Origin: Halovivax gelatinilyticus
Lineage (GTDB): Archaea; Halobacteriota; Halobacteria; Halobacteriales; Natrialbaceae
Assembly (NCBI RefSeq): GCF_024300625.1
Contig: NZ_CP101322.1
Location: forward strand, 1,563,992 to 1,627,991
DNA length: 64,000 bases
Direction: 5' to 3'
Position numbers and translations under genes: made by a program. Numbering within the stretch: the first letter of the stretch is position 1; the number at the start of each line of letters is the position of its first letter. This document shows, one piece after another, positions 13,515 through 25,195 of the stretch. The notes under the pieces were generated by a model that had not been told where the DNA came from, did no database searches, and worked only from the letters and a program-made list of their open reading frames with translations.

Positions 13515-14315
13515 TCACTCGACGAGGGTGACGTCGTACGAACCGAGTCGGTGGATCTGTCCCGCGTCCAGAACGGATTCGATCTCCCCGAGCGCCGCCT
13601 GCGTTCGCGACTCGGAAAGCGCCGCCTCCAGGTCGAGGTGGAACTCGTACTCGCCGAGGCGTCTGCCGGTCGGCCGCGATTCGATCCGGGTCAGGTTCAC
13701 GTCGCGGTCGGCGAACGGTTCGAGGAGGGCGAACAGCAGCCCCGGGTGGTTCGTCCCGGGCGCGATCACGACCGTGCTCTTCGAGCCGGTGTCGGTACGC
13801 TCCTCACCGCTTGCGAGGACGAAAAACCGCGTGCGGTTCGACGATCGATCCTGGACGTCCTCGTCGATCACCCGGAGTTCGTCCGCGGCGTCAGGGTGGG
13901 CGATGGCCGCGACCGAGTCGTCCTCGCGGGCGCGCTCGACTCCGGCGGCCGTGCTGGTGACGGCTTCGCGGGCGAGATCCGGATACGACCGATCGAGCGT
14001 CTCGCGACACTGGGCGAGCGCCTGCGGATGGCTCGCGACGGCATCGAACGAGTCGGTCTGGGCGAGCAGCGCGTGGCGAATCGGCAGGACGAGTTCGCCG
14101 ACGACGGCCACTGGCGCGTCGACGAGCGCATCGCTCGTCTCCGTCACGCTCCCTTCGATGCTATTTTCGATCGGGACGACGCCCCGGCTGACGTCGCCTC
14201 GCGCGACGGCGTCGACGATCGCCGTCACCGATCGTTCGAACGAGACCGGCTCGCCGAGGGTTCGTGCGGCTCGATGCGAGTAGGTGCCGGCTGGGCCGAG
14301 CGTACGGACCGTCAT
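13515..14315 (-). CDS. pheA: Prephenate dehydratase
   Basis: The 266-residue enzyme converts prephenate to phenylpyruvate in phenylalanine synthesis. The PDT domain begins LGPAGTYSHRAA, contains VPIENSIEGSVTETSDAL (about 47-64) and the catalytic TRF motif (SNRTRFFVLA, about 160-169). The C-terminal ACT domain has the family phenylalanine-binding pattern GLLFALLEPFADRDVNLTRIESRP. It is a stand-alone archaeal form without a fused chorismate mutase. It is transcribed toward hsp20 but separated from it by 71 bases with an internal promoter. Confidence 0.96.
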   Translation of the reverse strand: MTVRTLGPAGTYSHRAARTLGEPVSFERSVTAIVDAVARGDVSRGVVPIENSIEGSVTETSDALVDAPVAVVGELVLPIRHALLAQTDSFDAVASHPQALAQCRETLDRSYPDLAREAVTSTAAGVERAREDDSVAAIAHPDAADELRVIDEDVQDRSSNRTRFFVLASGEERTDTGSKSTVVIAPGTNHPGLLFALLEPFADRDVNLTRIESRPTGRRLGEYEFHLDLEAALSESRTQAALGEIESVLDAGQIHRLGSYDVTLVE

Positions 14316-16728: not shown

Positions 16729-17210
16729 TCAGTGTTCGGGGAACGGTTCCGGCGACAACGCCTCCACCTCGCCGCCGATCTCGTCGTAGAGCAGCCACCG
16801 GTCGTCGTGGCGGCGGAACTCGTACCGGGCTTCGGATTGATACCGGGGTTGATCGGGACGTGTTACTCGAATCAGCGCGCTCGCCTGCGTTCGATCGTCG
16901 TCATCGAGGATCTCTTCGTGGAGGTTCGATTCGATCACGTGAGGATCCTCCGCAGGATCGTCCCACTTGGACTAATTGCGGTGACCTGCTGTTCTTCGTA
17001 CAGCGTTAGATCGATTACGTCGAAATCTACCGGTGAGTCCGGGTGGAGGTACGTGCTCGCTTCGTCGAGATCGACGGTATCGAGTGCCCTGAAGAATTCT
17101 TTGAGGGCATCCGGTGGATCGGGCGGATCGTCCTCGAAGTAGTCGGTACAGCCCGCGGTACCGAGGGTGAGGGCGGATGCCGCGAACAGTCCGAACGTTC
17201 GCCTATGCAT
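16729..17210 (-). pseudogene. Third NTF2-like lipoprotein of cassette A, frameshifted
   Basis: The ATG at 17210 opens MHRRTFGLFAASALTLGTAGC, a twin-arginine signal with lipobox ending at Cys 21. It continues with FEDDPPDPPDALKEFFRALD and HPDSPVDF like its neighbours, then hits a TGA after GTILRRILT. The adjacent frame, entered at about 16965-16975, continues the family sequence (KWDDPAEDPHVIESN, DDDDRTQASA, YEFRRHDDRWLLYDEI, EPFPEH) to a stop at 16729. The 482-nt length is one base short of a multiple of three, and restoring it gives about 160 residues like the intact paralogs. One base has therefore been lost or missequenced. The start overlaps the preceding lipoprotein gene by 8 bases. Confidence 0.85.
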
Positions 17211-17673
17211 CGTCACGCTCTGCATCAGGAAACGGCTCGGAAGTGAACGCGTCGACGTGTCCGTCTATTTCGTCGTAGACGAACCACTCGTCATCCACTC
17301 GACGCATCTCGAAGACGGTCGAGTGTGCCCGTGGCGAATCGATCGCAAAACCGGTACTGAACCATTTTCGAGCGTCATCCGCTTGCACTTCGTCCGTCAC
17401 GTTTCCACCGTGTTCCGGATCGACGCGAGTCACGGGGTCGAGCCTAATATCCCAACTTTCGTATACGTCCAGGTTGACGGAACCCAGATCGACCGGCGAG
17501 TCTGGATGCAATAGCTCCTCGGCCGTATTGAGATCGCCGTCGAAGAGGGCTTCGAAGAACTCCCGCAACGATCCGGATGGCTCGGGCAGATCGTCCTCGA
17601 AGAAGCTAGAGCAACCTGCGGTACCGAGAGCAACGATAACTGTCGCGAACAGTCCGAACGTTCGTCTATGCAT
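17203..17673 (-). CDS. NTF2-like Tat lipoprotein (second of cassette A)
   Basis: The 156-residue secreted lipoprotein starts MHRRTFGLFATVIVALGTAGC: a twin-arginine motif followed by a lipobox with the lipidated Cys at residue 21. The mature part reads SLREFFEALFDGDLNTAEELLHPDSPV and later VFEMRRVDDEWFVYDEIDGHVDAF. This is the pattern of NTF2/SnoaL-like domains (helix 'FFEAL-GD-A-LLHPDS', final strands 'D-WxVYD'). It overlaps the upstream paralog by 8 bases and the downstream frameshifted paralog by 8 bases, so the three are translationally coupled. Function unknown; probably a surface binding or accessory protein for the Tat-exported protein encoded upstream. Confidence 0.85.
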   Translation of the reverse strand: MHRRTFGLFATVIVALGTAGCSSFFEDDLPEPSGSLREFFEALFDGDLNTAEELLHPDSPVDLGSVNLDVYESWDIRLDPVTRVDPEHGGNVTDEVQADDARKWFSTGFAIDSPRAHSTVFEMRRVDDEWFVYDEIDGHVDAFTSEPFPDAERDDA

Positions 17674-18160
17674 CGGTGCGGTCCAACTCTGGAAACGGCT
17701 CGATGGCCAGGGCGTCTGCGTTTCCACTTACCTCATCGTAGAGAAGCCACTCGTCTTCTAGACGGCGGAATTCGAACACTCCGTAACTGAAAAAGTTACG
17801 TTCGGGGATGTCTAAAAACGCCCCCACCCACGTTCGATCATCGCTGTCGAGCACATCGTTTGGGACGGCCTCTTCATCGAGATCTTCTCTCGGCGTTCCG
17901 TCTGGTTCGTACCAGATCGTCCGTGGTCTACTGACGCTGTGTGATTCGTAGACTGCCAACTCAATTTCACCAAGTTCGATTGGCGAGTCAGGATGACAGA
18001 GCCCCTTCGCTGCTTCTATCTCGCCCTCGTTCAGCGCCTCGAAGAATTTTCTGAGGACGTCCGTCGGATCAGGTGGATCGTCCTCGAAGTAGCTAGAGCA
18101 ACCAGCGAAGCTGATAGTGCACACTGTCACACTGATCGTACAAAAATTTCGTCTGTTCAT
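17666..18160 (-). CDS. NTF2-like lipoprotein (first of cassette A)
   Basis: The 164-residue lipoprotein starts MNRRNFCTISVTVCTISFAGC. It has a twin arginine, a hydrophobic core and a lipobox Cys at 21, so it is probably exported folded by Tat and anchored by lipid. The mature domain has DVLRKFFEALNEGEIEAAKGLCHPDSPI and VFEFRRLEDEWLLYDEVSGNADAL, an NTF2-like fold. It is paralogous to the two genes downstream, with diverged middle portions. A strong TATA box (18191-18210) sits between it and the end of the Tat-protein gene, so the lipoprotein array has its own promoter. Confidence 0.85.
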   Translation of the reverse strand: MNRRNFCTISVTVCTISFAGCSSYFEDDPPDPTDVLRKFFEALNEGEIEAAKGLCHPDSPIELGEIELAVYESHSVSRPRTIWYEPDGTPREDLDEEAVPNDVLDSDDRTWVGAFLDIPERNFFSYGVFEFRRLEDEWLLYDEVSGNADALAIEPFPELDRTDA

Positions 18161-18190
18161 TTTGGGAGGGACTTACTAACTACTATGGAC

Positions 18191-18210
18191 AATGCCTATA
18201 TATTATTTAC
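18191..18210 (-). promoter_or_regulatory. Promoter of the lipoprotein array, cassette A
   Basis: The minus-strand sequence GTAAATAATATATAGGCATT overlaps the last codons of the Tat-protein gene and lies 31-50 bases before the first lipoprotein ATG. The same sequence is conserved in cassette B (23886-23905). Confidence 0.6.
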
Positions 18211-19276
18211 CCAATGTTTTCTCGTCCCAAAAATCGTCCGGGAGCGGACCAGTCAAGGACATTTCGACCGGGTACTGGTAGTGGAAGTCGTCATCGTCTA
18301 ATCGCGCAATCTCTGCGGCATCCAGGTCGAACCGTTCAGGGTGTGCGTTGACGGTTGCTCCGGCGTAGGCGGTCAATCCCTCGTGGATTTCTGGGAACTC
18401 GATCCCTCGCAGCCCGGCATTCAGCAGCCGATCTGAACTCACACGGGCTTCGATTCGCTCGCGGAACGAGCCGGCGTTCGCGGGCATGATAATTTCGAAC
18501 GTCCCGCCTGTGTACAATGCATACGGCTTTCCCAGCAGGTGGATTGTGTCACCAACGTTGATTTCGAGGGTTTCGTTGGGTTCAAGTTGGACGTCATACT
18601 TTGTCCACCAACTCGTCTGTCTACGGCCGCCCCAGTCCCATTGGCGTTCGTATCTCTCTGGCCAGTCGAAGACATCATCGAAGTATGATCCGAGGGCGTC
18701 AACAATGTCCTCAGCTTTATCGACGTATTCGTCCGCTTCAATCAGACGTAACCCAAAATCGATAACGTAGTCGCTGACGTTGTTCCCTTGTCCATCGTCG
18801 TATTCATCGTGGTACCCACCGATGTAGGCCGAATGATTAGATGCCTGCACGATTCCATCGGGATGTCCCTCGGCAGAACTCTCGTCCCAGGTAATCGCGT
18901 GCTCGGTGTACTCCACGTTTGATAGGAGATCACCGGAGTCGGAGTGGGTGATTGCATTTCCGTTCATCTCCAGTGTTATTCTATCCCACGGAAATTCTGT
19001 AACTTCATTGGCCGTAAATTGAACCACCGAGCTTGAAGCGTAGCCTTCCACGCTTCCGCCGTAATTATCGGTCGCTTCGTCACTGAACTCCCAGGTCCGG
19101 TTGATGTCACCGCCTCCACCGCCCGGTGGCGGATCGAACGGATTCCGGTCGTCCGTCCCCGCGTCGTCATCAGTTCCAGCCGAAACCGTCTGTGAGAGCA
19201 GACTCGCGCTCACGCCCGTCATCGCCGCAGTGTGGAGGAACTGCCGACGGGGCCGCTCGATCGTCGCCGGTCGCAT
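18203..19276 (-). CDS. Tat-exported protein of unknown family (cassette A)
   Basis: The 357-residue protein has a twin-arginine signal: ERPRRQFLHTAAMTGVSASLLSQTVSA, cleavage expected near residue 33. The mature start is low-complexity (DPPPGGGGGDINRTWEF). The remainder is acidic, tryptophan-rich and beta-rich, with GGYHDEYDDGQGNNVSDYVIDFGL, TSWWTKYDVQLEPNETLEINVGD and HYQYPVEMSLTGPLPDDFWD. I recognise no domain. The paralog at 23901-24989 is nearly identical at both ends and diverged in the middle. The ancestral start (ATG 19293, MGNDNP...) has been put out of frame by a 1-base deletion near the twin-arginine codons, so the ATG at 19276 is the usable start. Confidence 0.8.
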   Translation of the reverse strand: MRPATIERPRRQFLHTAAMTGVSASLLSQTVSAGTDDDAGTDDRNPFDPPPGGGGGDINRTWEFSDEATDNYGGSVEGYASSSVVQFTANEVTEFPWDRITLEMNGNAITHSDSGDLLSNVEYTEHAITWDESSAEGHPDGIVQASNHSAYIGGYHDEYDDGQGNNVSDYVIDFGLRLIEADEYVDKAEDIVDALGSYFDDVFDWPERYERQWDWGGRRQTSWWTKYDVQLEPNETLEINVGDTIHLLGKPYALYTGGTFEIIMPANAGSFRERIEARVSSDRLLNAGLRGIEFPEIHEGLTAYAGATVNAHPERFDLDAAEIARLDDDDFHYQYPVEMSLTGPLPDDFWDEKTLGK

Positions 19277-19314
19277 GGGTTATCATTTCCCATGAGACAG
19301 ACATTCACAACCAG

Positions 19315-19330
19315 CGCTATAAGTATTTGC
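19315..19330 (-). promoter_or_regulatory. TATA box upstream of the cassette A Tat protein
   Basis: The minus-strand reading GCAAATACTTATAGC has TATA at 19318-19323, about 25-30 bases before the ancestral ATG at 19293. In cassette B the same position reads GCAAACACTTGTGAC and no longer looks like a TATA box. Confidence 0.5.
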
Positions 19331-19542
19331 AAAATGATAATAATTAACTGTGGGGGTGAATATGGGGCACAATATTAGAATGTCTTGGGTCATTTCTTCG
19401 AAAGTGGTGGTCTTTCATCCGTTCGTTTTGGATATCGCCATCCACGCTCGCCGCCAACCACTCCGCAAACGCGATCGAAACGCGGTATCGATCCGCCAAT
19501 AGACGACGAAACGCCGACGACAACTCACCAAAAAACAGCCAC

Positions 19543-21327
19543 TCACTCGCTTCGCAGCCCACTCAGATCGAACTCGAACGCGGCGACGGGGACTTCGAGG
19601 TCGTGTTCGACGAGCACCTCGGGGTGCAGTTCGCCGATCACGCCCACGTCGGTGCCGTCGAGTACCACGCTCGCGGTCCGGCCCTCGATGAACGACGGGT
19701 GATCGATCGCCGGCGTCTCAAGCGAGACGTCGAACGCGCGGGCGAGCGCCTGCAGACGGGCCTTCGCGTCCTCGTAGGCGGCGTCGTGGCGGGCGAGCAC
19801 GGCCGCGACGCGGCGCGACTCGGCGATGCCCGTATTTTCAGACTCGTCGAGTTCGGCCACGAAGCCGACCTCGGCTAAGTCCTGCGGGTAGGCGCGGTGG
19901 GTGTTGTGCTCGAGCAGCGACAGCAGCGACGGGAGCGACCAGGTTCGCACGATGGCGAAGTCCTCGCTGTAGGGATTCTTGATCCCGGCCGGATCGCCGC
20001 CGCCGAGCACGTCCGTTCCGGGTTCGACGCCGCAGCGCTCGAAGTTGTCCGCCTCGCCGACGAGGTGGAAGTTGAGCATGTCCTCGAAGCCGAGCCCGAC
20101 GAGCGTCTCGCGGACGGCCCGTTCGACTCGGCTGCGCTCGTGGCGACCGCCCACGGTGCCGACGGACGGGTAGCGCGGTTCGAGGTCGTTGAAGCCGTAG
20201 GCGCGACCGAGGTCGTCGATCACGTCGAGCGGGTGGAGCACGTCGACGCGGTAGGGCGGGATCGTCACCGCGTAGGCGAGGTCGCCGTCGTCGGTCTCGA
20301 CCCGTGCTGCGTCCAGCCCGGCCCGCTCGGCCAGGTCGAGTATCTCTTCGGGATCCAGATCGATCCCCAGGACCGACTCGATCCGGGCGTGCGAGACCGT
20401 CTTTTCCCTCGTCGAGAGCGCCGGTCGGACGAGCGCCGGGACGTCCCCCTCGCCGGCGACGTCGCGCCCGCCGCCGGACTCGATCGCCTCGCTCGCGACC
20501 GCGGGATCGGCGTACTCGACGCGCACGTCCTCGATGGTGGCGCCGCGGGCGTCGAGCGCGTAGCAGATGATCGCACACATCCGGTCGATCGTCCACTGGT
20601 CGGTCCCCGTGAGTTCGACGAAGAGGTCGCGCGAGTCCGTCGACACCTCGGTCCGTCGGCCGTTGATCACCGGCGGGAACGAGAACAGCCCGATGTCGTC
20701 GTAGATCGCGGGCATGGCCTCGTAGTCGGCGACGACTGGCGCGTACTCCCGGCCCGTCGGGTGGTCTTCGAGCACGTCTCCGGGGGTCAGCTCCCGATCG
20801 GAGTCGAGCGGGACGAATCGCTCGCCGTCGGGCGCGACGCCCGTGTAGCGGATGGACGGATTCCCCTCGGTAGCCGGCGCCCCGCGAAGCATCGCGAGGT
20901 CGTGAATGCCGATGGCTCCTTTCACCCGGTTTCGTCCCATCGTCGCGTGGAGCTTCTCCTGGAGCTGGATGAGCGAGTCGAGCGCGTCGTCGTCCAGGTC
21001 GACGCCGCGGATCACGGCGCCGGTGACGAACGGTCGCTCGGCGGGGACGTCCTCGTCGACTTCGATCGTCCAGTCGGCCTCGGTCGTCGTCGGGACGTAG
21101 ACGCCCCGGTCCTCGCCGTACTGGTATCGAAGCGAGCGGGCGATTCCCTCGACCGAGAGTCGGTCGAGCCGGTCGGGGGCGAACTCGAGTTCGAAGTCGC
21201 CGTCTTCGGTTTCACCCTCGTACTCCAGTCCGAGCGCGAACAGGTCGTCGATCAGTTCGTCGTCTGCGACCTCGGTCGCGCCCGAGAGCGTCCGCAGCTC
21301 GTCGGGGTCGATGTCGACGGTCGGCAT
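19543..21327 (-). CDS. pheT: Phenylalanine--tRNA ligase beta subunit
   Basis: The 594-residue archaeal/eukaryal-type beta subunit of the heterotetrameric enzyme opens MPTVDIDPDELRTLSGA. It contains the B3/B4 tRNA-binding and editing region (RVKGAIGIHDLAMLRG, IYDDIGLFSFPPVINGRRTEVS) and the catalytic-like core with KNPYSEDFAIVRTWSLPSLLSLLEHN. It ends GELHPEVLVEHDLEVPVAAFEFDLSGL. Its ATG overlaps the pheS stop by one base (TGATG), so the two subunits are co-translated. The downstream boundary abuts the duplicated upstream region of cassette A. Confidence 0.97.
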   Translation of the reverse strand: MPTVDIDPDELRTLSGATEVADDELIDDLFALGLEYEGETEDGDFELEFAPDRLDRLSVEGIARSLRYQYGEDRGVYVPTTTEADWTIEVDEDVPAERPFVTGAVIRGVDLDDDALDSLIQLQEKLHATMGRNRVKGAIGIHDLAMLRGAPATEGNPSIRYTGVAPDGERFVPLDSDRELTPGDVLEDHPTGREYAPVVADYEAMPAIYDDIGLFSFPPVINGRRTEVSTDSRDLFVELTGTDQWTIDRMCAIICYALDARGATIEDVRVEYADPAVASEAIESGGGRDVAGEGDVPALVRPALSTREKTVSHARIESVLGIDLDPEEILDLAERAGLDAARVETDDGDLAYAVTIPPYRVDVLHPLDVIDDLGRAYGFNDLEPRYPSVGTVGGRHERSRVERAVRETLVGLGFEDMLNFHLVGEADNFERCGVEPGTDVLGGGDPAGIKNPYSEDFAIVRTWSLPSLLSLLEHNTHRAYPQDLAEVGFVAELDESENTGIAESRRVAAVLARHDAAYEDAKARLQALARAFDVSLETPAIDHPSFIEGRTASVVLDGTDVGVIGELHPEVLVEHDLEVPVAAFEFDLSGLRSE

Positions 21328-22886
21328 CAGTAGATCACCTCCGCGTTCCGCAGGAACTCGAGATCGGCCAGGCTCCCGTGCAGGTCGCGGATGTCCTCCG
21401 CTCCCGTGACGAGCATCGCCAGGCGCTCTAAGGCGAGTCCCCAGGCCATCACGTCGGCCTCGACGCCGAGCGGTTCCAACATTTCCTCGCGGAAGATGCC
21501 TGAGTTACCGATCTCGATCAGCTCGCCCGTCGTCGGGTGGGTGCCGAACAGCTCGAAGCTCGGCTCGGTGTAGGGGTTGTAGTGCGGTTTGAATTGAATG
21601 TCTTCGATTCCGAACTGGGCGTAGAACTCTTCGAACGTGCCCATCAGGTCCCGCACCGAGAGCTCGTCGGCCATCACCCAGCCCTCGATCTGGAAGAACT
21701 CGAGTAAGTGCGTGGCGTCGAGCGTGTCGTTCCGATAGGCCTTCTGGACGCTGAAAAATCGAGCCGGCGGCTCGATCTCTCCGATCGCCTCGCCGGAGAG
21801 GTGCCTGGTGGTGAGCGAGGTGGTGTGTCCGCGAAGCGCGAGCGCGCGGGCGAAATCTTCGTCCCACGGCGAGCGGTAGCCTTCGCCGTCCTCGCCGACG
21901 CCCTCGCGGTGGACCCGTTCGACGCGTTCGACGAGGTCTGCCGGGAGATCGTCGATGTGCGTCGGCTCTTCGATGGCGAATCGGTCCCAGTGGGTGCGCG
22001 CCGGGTGGTCCTGGGGCATGAAGAGGCAGTCGTTGATCCAGAAGTCCGCGTCGACGTGCGGGCCGTCCATCTCGGAGAATCCCATCCCGACGAGGACGTC
22101 TTTGACCCGCTCTGCGGTCCGCCGAAGCACGTGCATCCGCCCGCCGTGGATCGTCTCCGCGTCGGCTTCGACGTTGTACTCGGCGAACGCCGCGTCGCGC
22201 CAGTCGCCGCTCGTCAGCAGGTCGGGCGTCACCTGTCCGACCGTCTCGGCGGTTTCGACGCCGGCCATGAGTTCGGTCACGCCGGCCTCGGTGAGCGTCG
22301 CCGAGCGCACCGTCGTCTCGTCGCGCTCTATCAGGTCTCGGCGTTCGAGCTGCTCTAACGCGTCCGAATCGATATCGAGGTCGTCTGCGGCGACGCCGCT
22401 CGACGTTCCATCGTCCTCACCCGCGTCGTCCGCAGCCGCGGCGATCGTCGAAAGCGCGTTCGCCTCCGCGTCGACGGATGGGTCGGCGTCCGGGTTCGCC
22501 GAGAGTTCGCCGCTGTCGATCGCCCCGTAGCCCTTCCGGGCGTAGTTCGAGAGGGCGATGTCGACCTGCGGTCCCTCGAGCCCCGACGCGCCGATCACCC
22601 GCCCCATCTGGACTGGTTCGTCGGCTCCGCCGGCGTCGATGGCGGCCTCGTAGAGTCGCACCTCCGGGAGGCCGTCGGCCTCGTACTCGCGTCCTTCGTC
22701 GGTCAGTTCGACGGTTTCGTCGACGCGTTCTGATACGGCGACCAGCCCCTCTTCTTCGAGTGCGAACAGCGCACCCGTGACCGTCTCTGGGGGCAGGTCG
22801 GTCGCCGCGGCGATGGCGTCGACGGACTGTTCCTCGTCCGTACTCGCGGTCTCAAGGACCGCAACCTGTGCCTGTGGCAATTGCAT
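21327..22886 (-). CDS. pheS: Phenylalanine--tRNA ligase alpha subunit
   Basis: The 519-residue catalytic subunit has N-terminal winged-helix modules (about 1-200; DEEQSVDAIAAATDLPPETVTGALFALEEEGLV), an acidic halophilic insert near 130-160 and then the class II core. Motif 2 region is RFFSVQKAYRNDTLDATHLLEFFQIEGW, and motif 3 is VMAWGLALERLAML (about 485-498). FMPQDHPART marks the entry to the active site. It is first in the pheS-pheT operon. A weak TATA candidate (GCGCTAACTGAG) lies about 30 bases upstream. Confidence 0.97.
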   Translation of the reverse strand: MQLPQAQVAVLETASTDEEQSVDAIAAATDLPPETVTGALFALEEEGLVAVSERVDETVELTDEGREYEADGLPEVRLYEAAIDAGGADEPVQMGRVIGASGLEGPQVDIALSNYARKGYGAIDSGELSANPDADPSVDAEANALSTIAAAADDAGEDDGTSSGVAADDLDIDSDALEQLERRDLIERDETTVRSATLTEAGVTELMAGVETAETVGQVTPDLLTSGDWRDAAFAEYNVEADAETIHGGRMHVLRRTAERVKDVLVGMGFSEMDGPHVDADFWINDCLFMPQDHPARTHWDRFAIEEPTHIDDLPADLVERVERVHREGVGEDGEGYRSPWDEDFARALALRGHTTSLTTRHLSGEAIGEIEPPARFFSVQKAYRNDTLDATHLLEFFQIEGWVMADELSVRDLMGTFEEFYAQFGIEDIQFKPHYNPYTEPSFELFGTHPTTGELIEIGNSGIFREEMLEPLGVEADVMAWGLALERLAMLVTGAEDIRDLHGSLADLEFLRNAEVIY

Positions 22887-23178
22887 TCGCTTGTCTACTA
22901 CCGCGTCCGTCTCTCAGTTAGCGCTTCCGACTCGCCGACGGCGGTCGTCGGGAGGTCCCGATCGGTCGGTTTCATCCGGGGACGACCGGTGGGGTCGCCC
23001 CGGGTTCCACCGCGCCCGTCACCGGGCGCCAAAAAAGCCAGGTCCCGTCGTCGAACGCGGCGGCTCGTACGCGATACACCGACGGCGGGAATCGCTCGTC
23101 ATAGCTCAGACGGCGTCGAGTACCGACATAAGCCTTGCGACGGCCCCTCACTGCGCTGGGACCTTCCATCGGACGGGG
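22887..23178. other. Intergenic region upstream of pheS
   Basis: About 290 bases lie between pheS and the decayed end of cassette B. The open frames are arginine-rich and unlike haloarchaeal proteins. No RNA gene or strong inverted repeat was seen; a weak pheS promoter is possible near 22915-22925. Confidence 0.4.
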
Positions 23179-23391
23179 TCACACGCCGAACAGTCGCGAA
23201 AATACCTTCGACCCGGCGACCCGCTGATGCGTTCTGATGGCCACTCGTTCGATACCGGGTTCCGCCGCGACATCGTACGCGTTGAAGAACTCCGGCAGGT
23301 TGGGCGGGTCATCTTCGATGTAGTCGGTACAGTCACCGCTACCGAGGGTAAAGACGGACGCCGCGGACAGTCCGTACTCACGCCTCTTCAT
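23179..23391 (-). pseudogene. Truncated remnant of the third lipoprotein (cassette B)
   Basis: The 70-codon frame starts MKRREYGLSAASVFTLGSGDCTDYIEDDPPN, clearly related to MHRRTFGLFAASALTLGTAGCTDYFEDDPPD of cassette A. Homology fades after LPEFFNAYD, and the rest (ERVAIRTHQRVAGS) is unrelated. The lipobox is degraded (GDC instead of AGC) and the twin-arginine context has changed. It overlaps the preceding lipoprotein remnant by 14 bases. It is probably a non-functional fragment. Confidence 0.7.
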
Positions 23392-23854
23392 CGTCACGCT
23401 CTACATCGGGAAACGGCTCGGAGGTGAACGCGTCGACGTGTCCGTCTATTTCGTCGTAGACGAGCCACTTGTCATCCACTCGGCGCATCTCGAAGAGACC
23501 CGAGTGAGCCCGCGGCGACTCGATCGCAAAACCGGTGCTGAACCACTTTCGAGAGTCATCGGCCCGAACCTCTTCAGTAACGTTTCCATCTTGTTCCGGA
23601 TCAACGTGAGTAACAGGGTCGAGTCTAATATCTCAGTTTTCATACAGTCCCAGATCGACCGTGTCAAAATCGACTGGCGAGTCGGGATGCAGTAGCTCCT
23701 CGACAGTCTCGTGATCCCCTTCGAAGAGGGCTTCGAAGAACTCTCTGAGGACGTCTGGCGGGTCGGATGGATCGTCTTCGAAGTAGCTAGAGCAACCTGC
23801 GAAGCTGATAGTACACACTGACACACCGATCGTGCAAAAATTCCGTCTGTTCAT
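23378..23854 (-). pseudogene. Chimeric NTF2-like lipoprotein with internal stop (cassette B)
   Basis: The ATG at 23854 opens MNRRNFCTIGVSVCTISFAGC (lipobox Cys 21), like the first lipoprotein of cassette A. After 73 codons a TGA occurs at 23635-23633 (GLYEN-stop). The same frame continues DIRLDPVTHVDPEQDG, RKWFSTGFAIESPRAHS and FEMRRVDDKWLVYDEIDGHVDAF to a stop at 23378, matching the second lipoprotein of cassette A. At the stop, the paralog has TGG (Trp in YESWDIRL). The gene is thus a first/second-lipoprotein fusion of 158 codons that later acquired a nonsense mutation. Confidence 0.88.
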
Positions 23855-23885
23855 TTCGGGAGGATCTTACTGACTACCATGGGCA

Positions 23886-23905
23886 ATACCTATATATTAT
23901 TTACC
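23886..23905 (-). promoter_or_regulatory. Promoter of the lipoprotein remnant, cassette B
   Basis: The minus-strand sequence GTAAATAATATATAGGTATT is conserved with 18191-18210 and lies 32-51 bases before the lipoprotein ATG. The promoter survives although the gene is broken. Confidence 0.55.
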
Positions 23906-24989
23906 CAACGTGTTTATCGTCCCAAAAATCGTCCGGAAGCGGACCGGTCAACGACATTTCGACCGGGTACTGGTAATGGAAGTCGTCATCGTCTAATTGC
24001 GCAATCTCTGCGGCATCCAGGTCGAACCGTTCAGGGTGTGCGTTGACGGTGGCTCCGGCGTAGGCGGTCAGTCCCTCGTGGATTTCGGGGAACTCGATCC
24101 CGCGCGTTCCGGCACGCAGTAGTCGATCCGAACTCACACGGGCTTCGATTCGCTCGCGAAACGAGCCGGCGTTCGCGGGCATGATGATCTCGAACGCTCC
24201 ACCCATGTGCAGCGCACCCGGTTTACCCCACAGGTCGACCACGTCACCGACGTTGATCTCAAGTGTTTCGTTAGGTTCGAGCTTTACCTCGTACTTCGTC
24301 CACCAGCTGGTCTGTTTCCGTCCGTCCCAGTCCCAGTCGCGTTCGTAGGTTTCTGGTGGTTCGAAGTAGTCATCGTAAATTGATCCGAGTGCATCAACGA
24401 TCGTCTCAGCGTGATCAACATACGCGTCGGCACCGATCTGACTCAAGCCGAAATCGATCACGTAGTCGCTGACGTTGTTGCCTTCGCCGTCGTCGTACTC
24501 GTCGTGATAGCCACCGATCCAGTCGGAATCTGGTGATGCGTGTATGAGCCCCTCTTGTGGTCCGGCAGCGGAATCATCGTCCCAGGAGATCGCGTGTCCG
24601 GTTCGCTCTACATTGGGTAACAGCACGCCAGTGTCGGAGTGAGTGATTGCGTTTCCGTTAATTTCGAGAGAAATTATGTCCCAGTCTTTGTTTTTCCTCC
24701 CATCTGCAGTAAACTGAACTACCGAACTCGACGCGTACCCTTCCACGCTTCCGCCGTAGTTGTCGGTCGCTTCGTCACTGAACTCCCAGGTCCGGTTGAT
24801 GTCACCGCCTCCGCCGCCCGGTGGCGGATCGAACGGATTCCGATTGTCTGTCCCTGCGCCGTCATCGTCTCCGGCCGAAACCGTCTGCGAGAGCAGACCC
24901 GCACTCACGCCCGTCATCGCCGCAGTTTGGAGGAACTGCCGACGCGGGCGGCTCGATCGTCGTCGGTCGTATGGGTTGTCATTTCCCAT
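23901..24989 (-). CDS. Tat-exported protein of unknown family (cassette B)
   Basis: The 362-residue paralog of 18203-19276 starts at MGNDNPYDRRRSSRPRRQFLQTAAMTG; the twin-arginine signal is intact and in frame with this ATG. The mature protein has the same glycine/proline-rich start and the conserved blocks GGYHDEYDDGEGNNVSDYVIDFGL, TSWWTKYEVKLEPNETLEINVGD and VEMSLTGPLPDDFWD. The central part differs clearly from copy A. The TATA region of copy A is not conserved here, so expression may be reduced. Function unknown; no recognised domain. Confidence 0.8.
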   Translation of the reverse strand: MGNDNPYDRRRSSRPRRQFLQTAAMTGVSAGLLSQTVSAGDDDGAGTDNRNPFDPPPGGGGGDINRTWEFSDEATDNYGGSVEGYASSSVVQFTADGRKNKDWDIISLEINGNAITHSDTGVLLPNVERTGHAISWDDDSAAGPQEGLIHASPDSDWIGGYHDEYDDGEGNNVSDYVIDFGLSQIGADAYVDHAETIVDALGSIYDDYFEPPETYERDWDWDGRKQTSWWTKYEVKLEPNETLEINVGDVVDLWGKPGALHMGGAFEIIMPANAGSFRERIEARVSSDRLLRAGTRGIEFPEIHEGLTAYAGATVNAHPERFDLDAAEIAQLDDDDFHYQYPVEMSLTGPLPDDFWDDKHVG

Positions 24990-25195
24990 GAGACAGACAT
25001 TCACAACCAGCGTCACAAGTGTTTGCAAAATGATAATAAATAACTGTATATGTGAATGTGGGACACAATATTAGAATGTCCTGATTCTTTTCTTCGAAAG
25101 TAGCGTCTTTTCAACCATTTGTTTTGGACATCGCCACTCACTTCCTGTGTCAATTACTCCGCGAACGCGATCGAAACGTAGTATCGAACCGGCAA

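What the first reader, a model, noticed from the sequence alone, without database searches (positions are those of the whole stretch)
16729..25195. Direct segmental duplication of a Tat-protein/lipoprotein cassette on both sides of pheST
Two segments (16729-19505 and 23179-25195) share gene order, coding sequence, internal promoters and about 200 bases of upstream sequence, and run in the same direction, with the essential pheS-pheT operon between them. Homologous recombination between them would excise pheST, so the arrangement should be unstable unless the copies diverge or pheST exists elsewhere. Why an unrelated export cassette brackets a tRNA-synthetase operon is unexplained.
Basis: seen in the sequence. 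Interest (0 to 1): 0.7.

Follow-up and report, generated by a model that had tools for sequence, protein, structure and literature searches.

The report
Duplicated export cassette flanking pheST operon
Old, diverged copies of a rare export-gene cassette were inserted on both sides of an essential tRNA-synthetase operon in one salt-loving archaeon, which is a mostly ordinary insertion history; the operon itself turns out to carry a short phenylalanine-rich leader peptide, conserved across nearly all haloarchaea sampled, that looks like an amino-acid sensor.

Summary
The repeat is real, but neither recent nor two-copy. The Tat-protein/lipoprotein cassette occurs three times in this genome: A (16729-19499), B (~23290-25195) and C, 380 kb away. 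A-B identity is 81% (dS ~0.7, as deep as the split from congeners). All four congeners have the same pheST neighbourhood without any cassette, so A and B are insertions beside an old operon. B and C are sisters. C carries a 128-bp remnant of the pheT 3' end, so it descends from a cassette downstream of pheT. The excision risk is muted: the longest identical A-B run is 52 bp and pheST is single-copy. Lipoprotein genes carry lesions in every copy, while Tat genes show purifying selection. The family is nearly orphan (3 of 391 haloarchaeal genomes); its function is unresolved.

The more interesting feature lies between B and pheS: a 27-codon ORF ending in Phe codons. Such ORFs precede pheS in 54 of 60 haloarchaeal genomes (strict criterion 49; shuffles 0-1), usually with a TATA box 29-30 nt upstream. 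A published dRNA-seq study lists a 26-aa pheS uORF in Haloferax volcanii without this interpretation. It resembles PheM-type leader peptides; regulation is untested.

The parts
16729..19499 (-). Cassette copy A: TatA, LP1, LP2, frameshifted LP3, with upstream region
   Evidence: Homology to B and C; absent at this site in four congeners
18203..19276 (-). TatA: 357-aa exported protein with twin-arginine motif RPRRQFL; start region frameshifted relative to B/C, downstream ATG used
17666..18160 (-). LP1: lipoprotein (lipobox AGC), intact, NTF2-like by weak evidence
17203..17673 (-). LP2: lipoprotein, intact
16729..17210 (-). LP3: lipoprotein gene broken by a frameshift near 16935-16960 (copy C has it intact)
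19543..21327 (-). pheT
   Evidence: synteny and homology in four congeners
21327..22886 (-). pheS, single copy in genome
22967..23012 (-). Predicted hairpin closed by CGGU/ACCG just after the leader stop codon
   Evidence: RNAalifold on 21 relatives, z -5.2, some compensatory changes
23019..23102 (-). pheST leader ORF MTSDSRRRCIAYEPPRSTTGPGFFGAR*; TATA-like element about 30 nt upstream (near 23132)
   Evidence: Conserved in 54 of 60 class genomes
23290..25195 (-). Cassette copy B: TatB, LP chimera, truncated LP3, with upstream region
   Evidence: absent at this site in congeners
23901..24989 (-). TatB: 362-aa Tat protein, signal above the TIGR01409 cut-off
23389..23854 (-). LP1/LP2 chimeric lipoprotein gene with in-frame TGA at 23635-23633
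23179..23391 (-). Truncated, diverged LP3 remnant; similarity to other copies lost below about 23290

Best explanation
pheST is an old, conserved operon whose two flanks received copies of an accessory cassette (one Tat-exported protein plus tandem NTF2-like lipoproteins) on the lineage of this species. Shown: neither cassette is present at pheST in four congeners; the cassette has three copies; B and C are sisters; C carries a remnant of the pheT 3' end; the copies are old and partly homogenised. Inferred order: (1) a cassette settled in the short spacer between pheT and the ATP-grasp gene (position A); (2) a copy that took along the pheT 3' end reached site C; (3) a sister of C was placed upstream of the pheST promoter (B). 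B and C share an LP1/LP2 fusion. Gene conversion kept the ends of the Tat genes similar while the middles diverged and lipoprotein genes decayed. The cassette has no functional link with pheST; the insertions left the operon's promoter, leader and coding sequence in place, which is why they were tolerated. The likely work of the cassette, a secreted effector or surface protein with membrane-anchored partner lipoproteins, is inference with weak support.
For: Empty sites in four congeners with conserved flanks. Third copy. B-C sister relation by site counts, tree, shared chimera junction and contiguous alignment. pheT remnant upstream of C, score 84 against a shuffle maximum of 34, best match to this genome's own pheT. 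dS 0.71/0.66/0.48 between copies against 0.53-0.64 for pheS between species. Synonymous difference 0.10-0.28 at the ends of the Tat gene against 0.44-0.78 in codons 60-240. Operon unit seen as a Tat+lipoprotein pair in another genus.
Against: B shows no significant pheT remnant, so its route is not fixed. The copies are as diverged as the species split yet congeners have no trace, so separate import of already diverged copies, or loss in congeners, is not excluded. No mobilising enzyme or terminal repeat was found. The site of C is not syntenic in congeners, so no empty site could be shown there.
Confidence: 0.72

Rival explanations
1. B is the remnant of a tandem duplication of a whole pheST-cassette block, of which the outer pheST was later deleted. 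This would explain the bracketing directly.
For: Order and orientation fit (cassette-pheST-cassette, all on one strand), and A lies directly downstream of pheT.
Against: No pheT or pheS trace between cassette B and the methyltransferase (score 30 against shuffle maximum 29; rank 105 of 913 in a sliding control). B's nearest relative is C, not A.
Confidence: 0.12
2. The copies were imported separately by horizontal transfer from donors that carried diverged versions.
For: Patchy distribution; lower GC than the surroundings (about 0.54-0.58 against 0.64-0.67); deep divergence with no trace in congeners.
Against: C carries a pheT tail closest to this genome's own pheT; conversion between copies shows long residence together. 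No donor was found in plasmids, phages or the genome-contig scan.
Confidence: 0.15
3. Function: the cassette is an exported toxin with an array of membrane-anchored immunity lipoproteins, amplified because an unprotected cell is harmed.
For: One exported protein with up to three tandem, mutually diverged lipoproteins; patchy distribution; diverged middle of the Tat protein; intact LP1 and LP2 remain in A and LP3 in C.
Against: No toxin domain or fold recognised; structure prediction failed. NTF2-like folds are not specific to immunity. A surface-binding or enzyme-partner role is equally open.
Confidence: 0.25
4. The bracket is an assembly artefact.
For: Repeats can cause misjoins.
Against: Single 3.70 Mb contig; copies differ by 16-19% and by indels, so they are distinct loci; the flanks keep the gene order seen in congeners.
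Confidence: 0.02

Closest known systems
Lineage-specific paralogous gene-cluster expansion with gene conversion (general phenomenon)
   Same: Three diverged copies, converted ends, pseudogene decay in part of each copy
   Different: Copies bracket an essential operon, and one copy carries a fragment of that operon's last gene
NTF2-like / DUF4878 lipoproteins
   Same: Lipobox, then helices followed by beta strands in a low-confidence model; weak profile matches to NTF2-like proteins
   Different: Only the G050 homologue touches DUF4878, below the curated cut-off; fold search uninformative
Bacterial pheST leader peptide attenuators (PheM of E. coli; from general knowledge)
   Same: Short ORF with clustered Phe codons ahead of pheST, hairpin following
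   Different: Archaeal; ORF appears to start at the 5' end of the mRNA (TATA 29-30 nt before the ATG); no U-run terminator seen; peptide unrelated in sequence; regulation untested
uORF of Haloferax volcanii pheS (HVO_2948), PMC4983044 Table 2
   Same: 26-aa uORF in a mapped long 5'-UTR of pheS with no second start site
   Different: The text found contains no mention of attenuation or a leader peptide; sequence of that uORF not read here

Membership tests
Recent segmental duplication able to recombine | Long near-identical copies | tested here: not met
   81% identity, dS 0.71, longest identical run 52 bp
Insertion-sequence or composite-transposon mediated copies | Transposase and terminal inverted repeats at the borders | tested here: inconclusive
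   No border inverted repeats among those listed and no transposase-like ORF recognised by eye in or beside the copies; decayed ends would hide them
Tat-exported protein | Twin-arginine signal above a curated cut-off | tested here: met
   TatB 19.5 bits against cut-off 16.7; TatA 13.0, below it
NTF2-like lipoprotein (DUF4878) | Pfam score above the gathering cut-off | tested here: not met
   Best 16.0 against 24.1, in the G050 homologue only; LP1 and LP2 give no Pfam match
Toxin-immunity pair | Toxic activity neutralised by the partner | not testable with these tools
   Needs expression experiments
Amino-acid leader-peptide attenuator (PheM type) | Short ORF with clustered cognate codons ahead of the operon | tested here: met
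   49 of 60 strict, 54 of 60 with variants, shuffles 0-1 of 60; Phe 4 of 837 residues outside the last ten
Amino-acid leader-peptide attenuator (PheM type) | ORF lies on the operon's transcript | tested here: inconclusive
   TATA 29-30 nt before the leader ATG in 47 of 49; published mapped long 5'-UTR with a 26-aa uORF in Hfx. volcanii; no transcript data for this species
Amino-acid leader-peptide attenuator (PheM type) | Mutually exclusive terminator and antiterminator structures | tested here: inconclusive
   One conserved hairpin after the stop; no alternative structure or U-run terminator established
Amino-acid leader-peptide attenuator (PheM type) | Expression responds to charged tRNA-Phe through the leader | not testable with these tools
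   Needs reporter assays

The most novel reading that the evidence does not exclude
The pheST operon at the centre of this arrangement is controlled across haloarchaea by a leaderless, Phe-codon-rich leader peptide and a following RNA hairpin: an archaeal ribosome-mediated sensor of Phe-tRNA charging, analogous to but unrelated in sequence to bacterial PheM attenuation.
Probability: 0.6. Interest if true: 0.78.

Novelty: new variant of a known kind. Interest (0 to 1): 0.5.

Why it matters
The cassette history is a case where the tail of an essential neighbour (pheT), carried along with a copy, reveals the direction of duplication, and it shows that direct repeats around an essential operon can persist once they have diverged. 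The leader matters more: I found no paper in the library searched on leader-peptide control of a tRNA-synthetase operon in archaea. One in which promoter, peptide and hairpin are conserved across a class can be tested directly in Haloferax volcanii and bears on how transcription, translation and amino-acid supply are coupled in archaea.

Tried and rejected
Relatives of the Tat protein in plasmids, phages and the genome-contig scan: none. AlphaFold of TatA from a two-row alignment: pLDDT 28, discarded. AlphaFold of LP2: pLDDT 51, helices then strands, Foldseek uninformative. The weak Tat hits in G028 (inside a longer ORF with an HELVHALQ motif, read by eye) and G062 (336-aa Tat protein of doubtful kinship) were not used. 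B as remnant of a pheST tandem duplication: no pheT trace. A target-site-like repeat of the ATP-grasp 3' end upstream of A: not significant (215 of 914 control segments score as high). Empty site for C in congeners: region not syntenic. Rfam at the locus: only chance-level matches. Trp-rich leader upstream of trpS as an analogue: not found, though strand choice is uncertain for some loci. An alternative pairing of the post-stop CGGU with the conserved GGAACCGCTAAC motif was considered but fails in the congeners (GGAAGCGC), so it is not claimed.

Full report
1. Is it there? Yes, with corrections. The window is G000:C1:1563992-1627991 of a 3.70 Mb single-contig genome. From the sizes of the congeneric genomes I infer the genus Halovivax; that is from memory and was not tested. 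A direct-repeat search finds blocks of 80-91% identity at a spacing of about 5,695 bp, and one more at 6,181 bp: two segments in the same orientation on either side of pheT-pheS, with B shorter than A by about one lipoprotein gene. BLASTN gives 81.4% over 1,529 columns and 81.5% over 513 columns. The 3' portion of A (16729-17109) is missing from B.

2. A third copy. The Tat protein has three places in the genome, A, B and C at 1204592-1205641; the lipoproteins give seven matches in the same three places. C spans about L011 7596-9832. B and C align contiguously over 1,858 bp at 84.3%, whereas A differs from both by an extra lipoprotein-sized stretch. B and C both have an LP1-head/LP2-tail chimera with the switch at the same place. 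Shared-site counts (117 B=C, 54 A=C, 52 A=B) and a protein tree with the G050 homologue (99/96, long outgroup branch) agree that B and C are sisters.

3. Where the copies came from. In all four congeners the order is ATP-grasp(+), pheT-pheS(-), then methyltransferase and/or GNAT genes(+), with only a short spacer after pheT and no cassette on either side. One congener has other genes between pheS and the methyltransferase, among them what reads as a cytochrome P450, so that flank accepts insertions. The Tat family is found in 3 of 119 relatives and 3 of 391 class genomes, this one included. So pheST is the old resident and both cassettes are additions, unless all congeners lost them. Upstream of C lies a 128-bp remnant of the pheT 3' end, in the same position relative to the cassette as the real pheT is to copy A (score 84 against a shuffle maximum of 34; three-way alignment). 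It matches this genome's own pheT best. Hence C descends from a cassette that lay just downstream of pheT. B has no such trace.

4. Age and stability. Synonymous divergence between copies (dS 0.71 A-B, 0.66 A-C, 0.48 B-C) is about that of pheS between this species and its congeners (0.53-0.64). It is uneven: synonymous difference is 0.10-0.28 at both ends of the Tat gene and 0.44-0.78 over codons 60-240, which suggests partial gene conversion. The longest identical A-B run is 52 bp. Recombination that deletes pheST is possible but handicapped, and should be lethal because pheS is single-copy. dN/dS of 0.14-0.21 shows that the Tat proteins were maintained. The lipoprotein genes decay: A LP3 frameshifted, B chimera with TGA and LP3 truncated, C chimera with TAA and LP3 intact. 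TatA's upstream ATG is out of frame relative to B/C, and a downstream ATG opens the frame.

5. What the cassette might do. The Tat protein has a twin-arginine signal (TatB above the NCBIfam cut-off, TatA below it) and otherwise no recognisable domain; structure prediction failed. The lipoproteins weakly resemble NTF2-like domains. A homologous pair, Tat protein followed at once by one lipoprotein, exists in another genus (L023 8492-10035), so the operon is a real unit. I favour a secreted effector or surface protein with membrane-anchored partner or immunity proteins, at low confidence.

6. What else is in the interval. Between copy B and pheS the minus strand encodes MTSDSRRRCIAYEPPRSTTGPGFFGAR* (23102-23019); the congeners encode MTSESRRRC...GFGFFLAR* or ...FAFFFAR*. 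Of 60 class genomes with a readable pheS start, 49 have an ATG mini-ORF with FF near its end, against 0-1 in dinucleotide-preserving shuffles, and five more have variants such as GFGFVFDR, 54 in all. The remaining six show none in the 420 nt examined. The 60 were drawn across the class and are related, so the count is not 60 independent events. Four Phe in the last ten residues is the norm (35 of 49), Phe is nearly absent elsewhere (4 of 837 residues), and the Phe codons vary synonymously (142 TTC, 37 TTT), so it is conserved as a peptide. A T-rich TATA-like box begins 29-30 nt before the leader ATG in 47 of 49, the arrangement expected of a leaderless haloarchaeal mRNA. After the stop, 21 sequences of the same family share a hairpin closed by CGGU/ACCG with some compensatory changes inside (z -5.2 against column shuffles, supportive only). 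A strict FGFFF pattern occurs at most once per genome in 41 genomes; the four hits I could check against pheS coordinates lie directly upstream of pheS. PMC4983044 (Haloferax volcanii TSS map) lists a 26-aa uORF in a long 5'-UTR of pheS without a second start site, and the text has no mention of attenuation or leader peptides. Library searches found no paper on such a leader in archaea, within the limits of an open-access library. The best reading is a leader peptide that senses Phe-tRNA charging; transcriptional versus translational control is open, since no U-run terminator is evident.

7. Verdict. The reported duplication is real but old, three-copy and mechanistically ordinary; the instability worry is weak and the ancestral-state question is answered. 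The Phe leader of pheST is the feature at this locus that deserves experiments; it is not part of the original finding, and the interest score reflects both.

Noticed in passing
window 23019-23102 (-), with homologues in L015-L018 and L051-L115: Leader ORF upstream of pheS ending in clustered Phe codons, preceded by a TATA-like box and followed by a conserved hairpin, in 54 of 60 haloarchaeal genomes; looks like a PheM-type leader peptide.
   Followed up: yes
just upstream of pheS in most class genomes (window about 22905-22925, minus strand): Motif CGGAACCGCTAACTGA (GGAAGCGCTAACTGA in this genus) is conserved about 35 nt before the pheS start, even in several genomes that lack the leader ORF; role unknown.
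   Followed up: no
window 13515-14315 (-): Prephenate dehydratase with ACT domain (phenylalanine biosynthesis) lies near pheST and stays there in all four congeners; the strict Phe-leader pattern gives no second hit per genome.
   Followed up: partly
L022 8583-10896: A congener has a different insertion between pheS and the methyltransferase gene (an HTH-like ORF and what reads as a cytochrome P450), at the same flank as copy B.
   Followed up: no
L011 9945-10068: 128-bp remnant of the pheT 3' end upstream of cassette copy C, 380 kb from pheST.
   Followed up: yes
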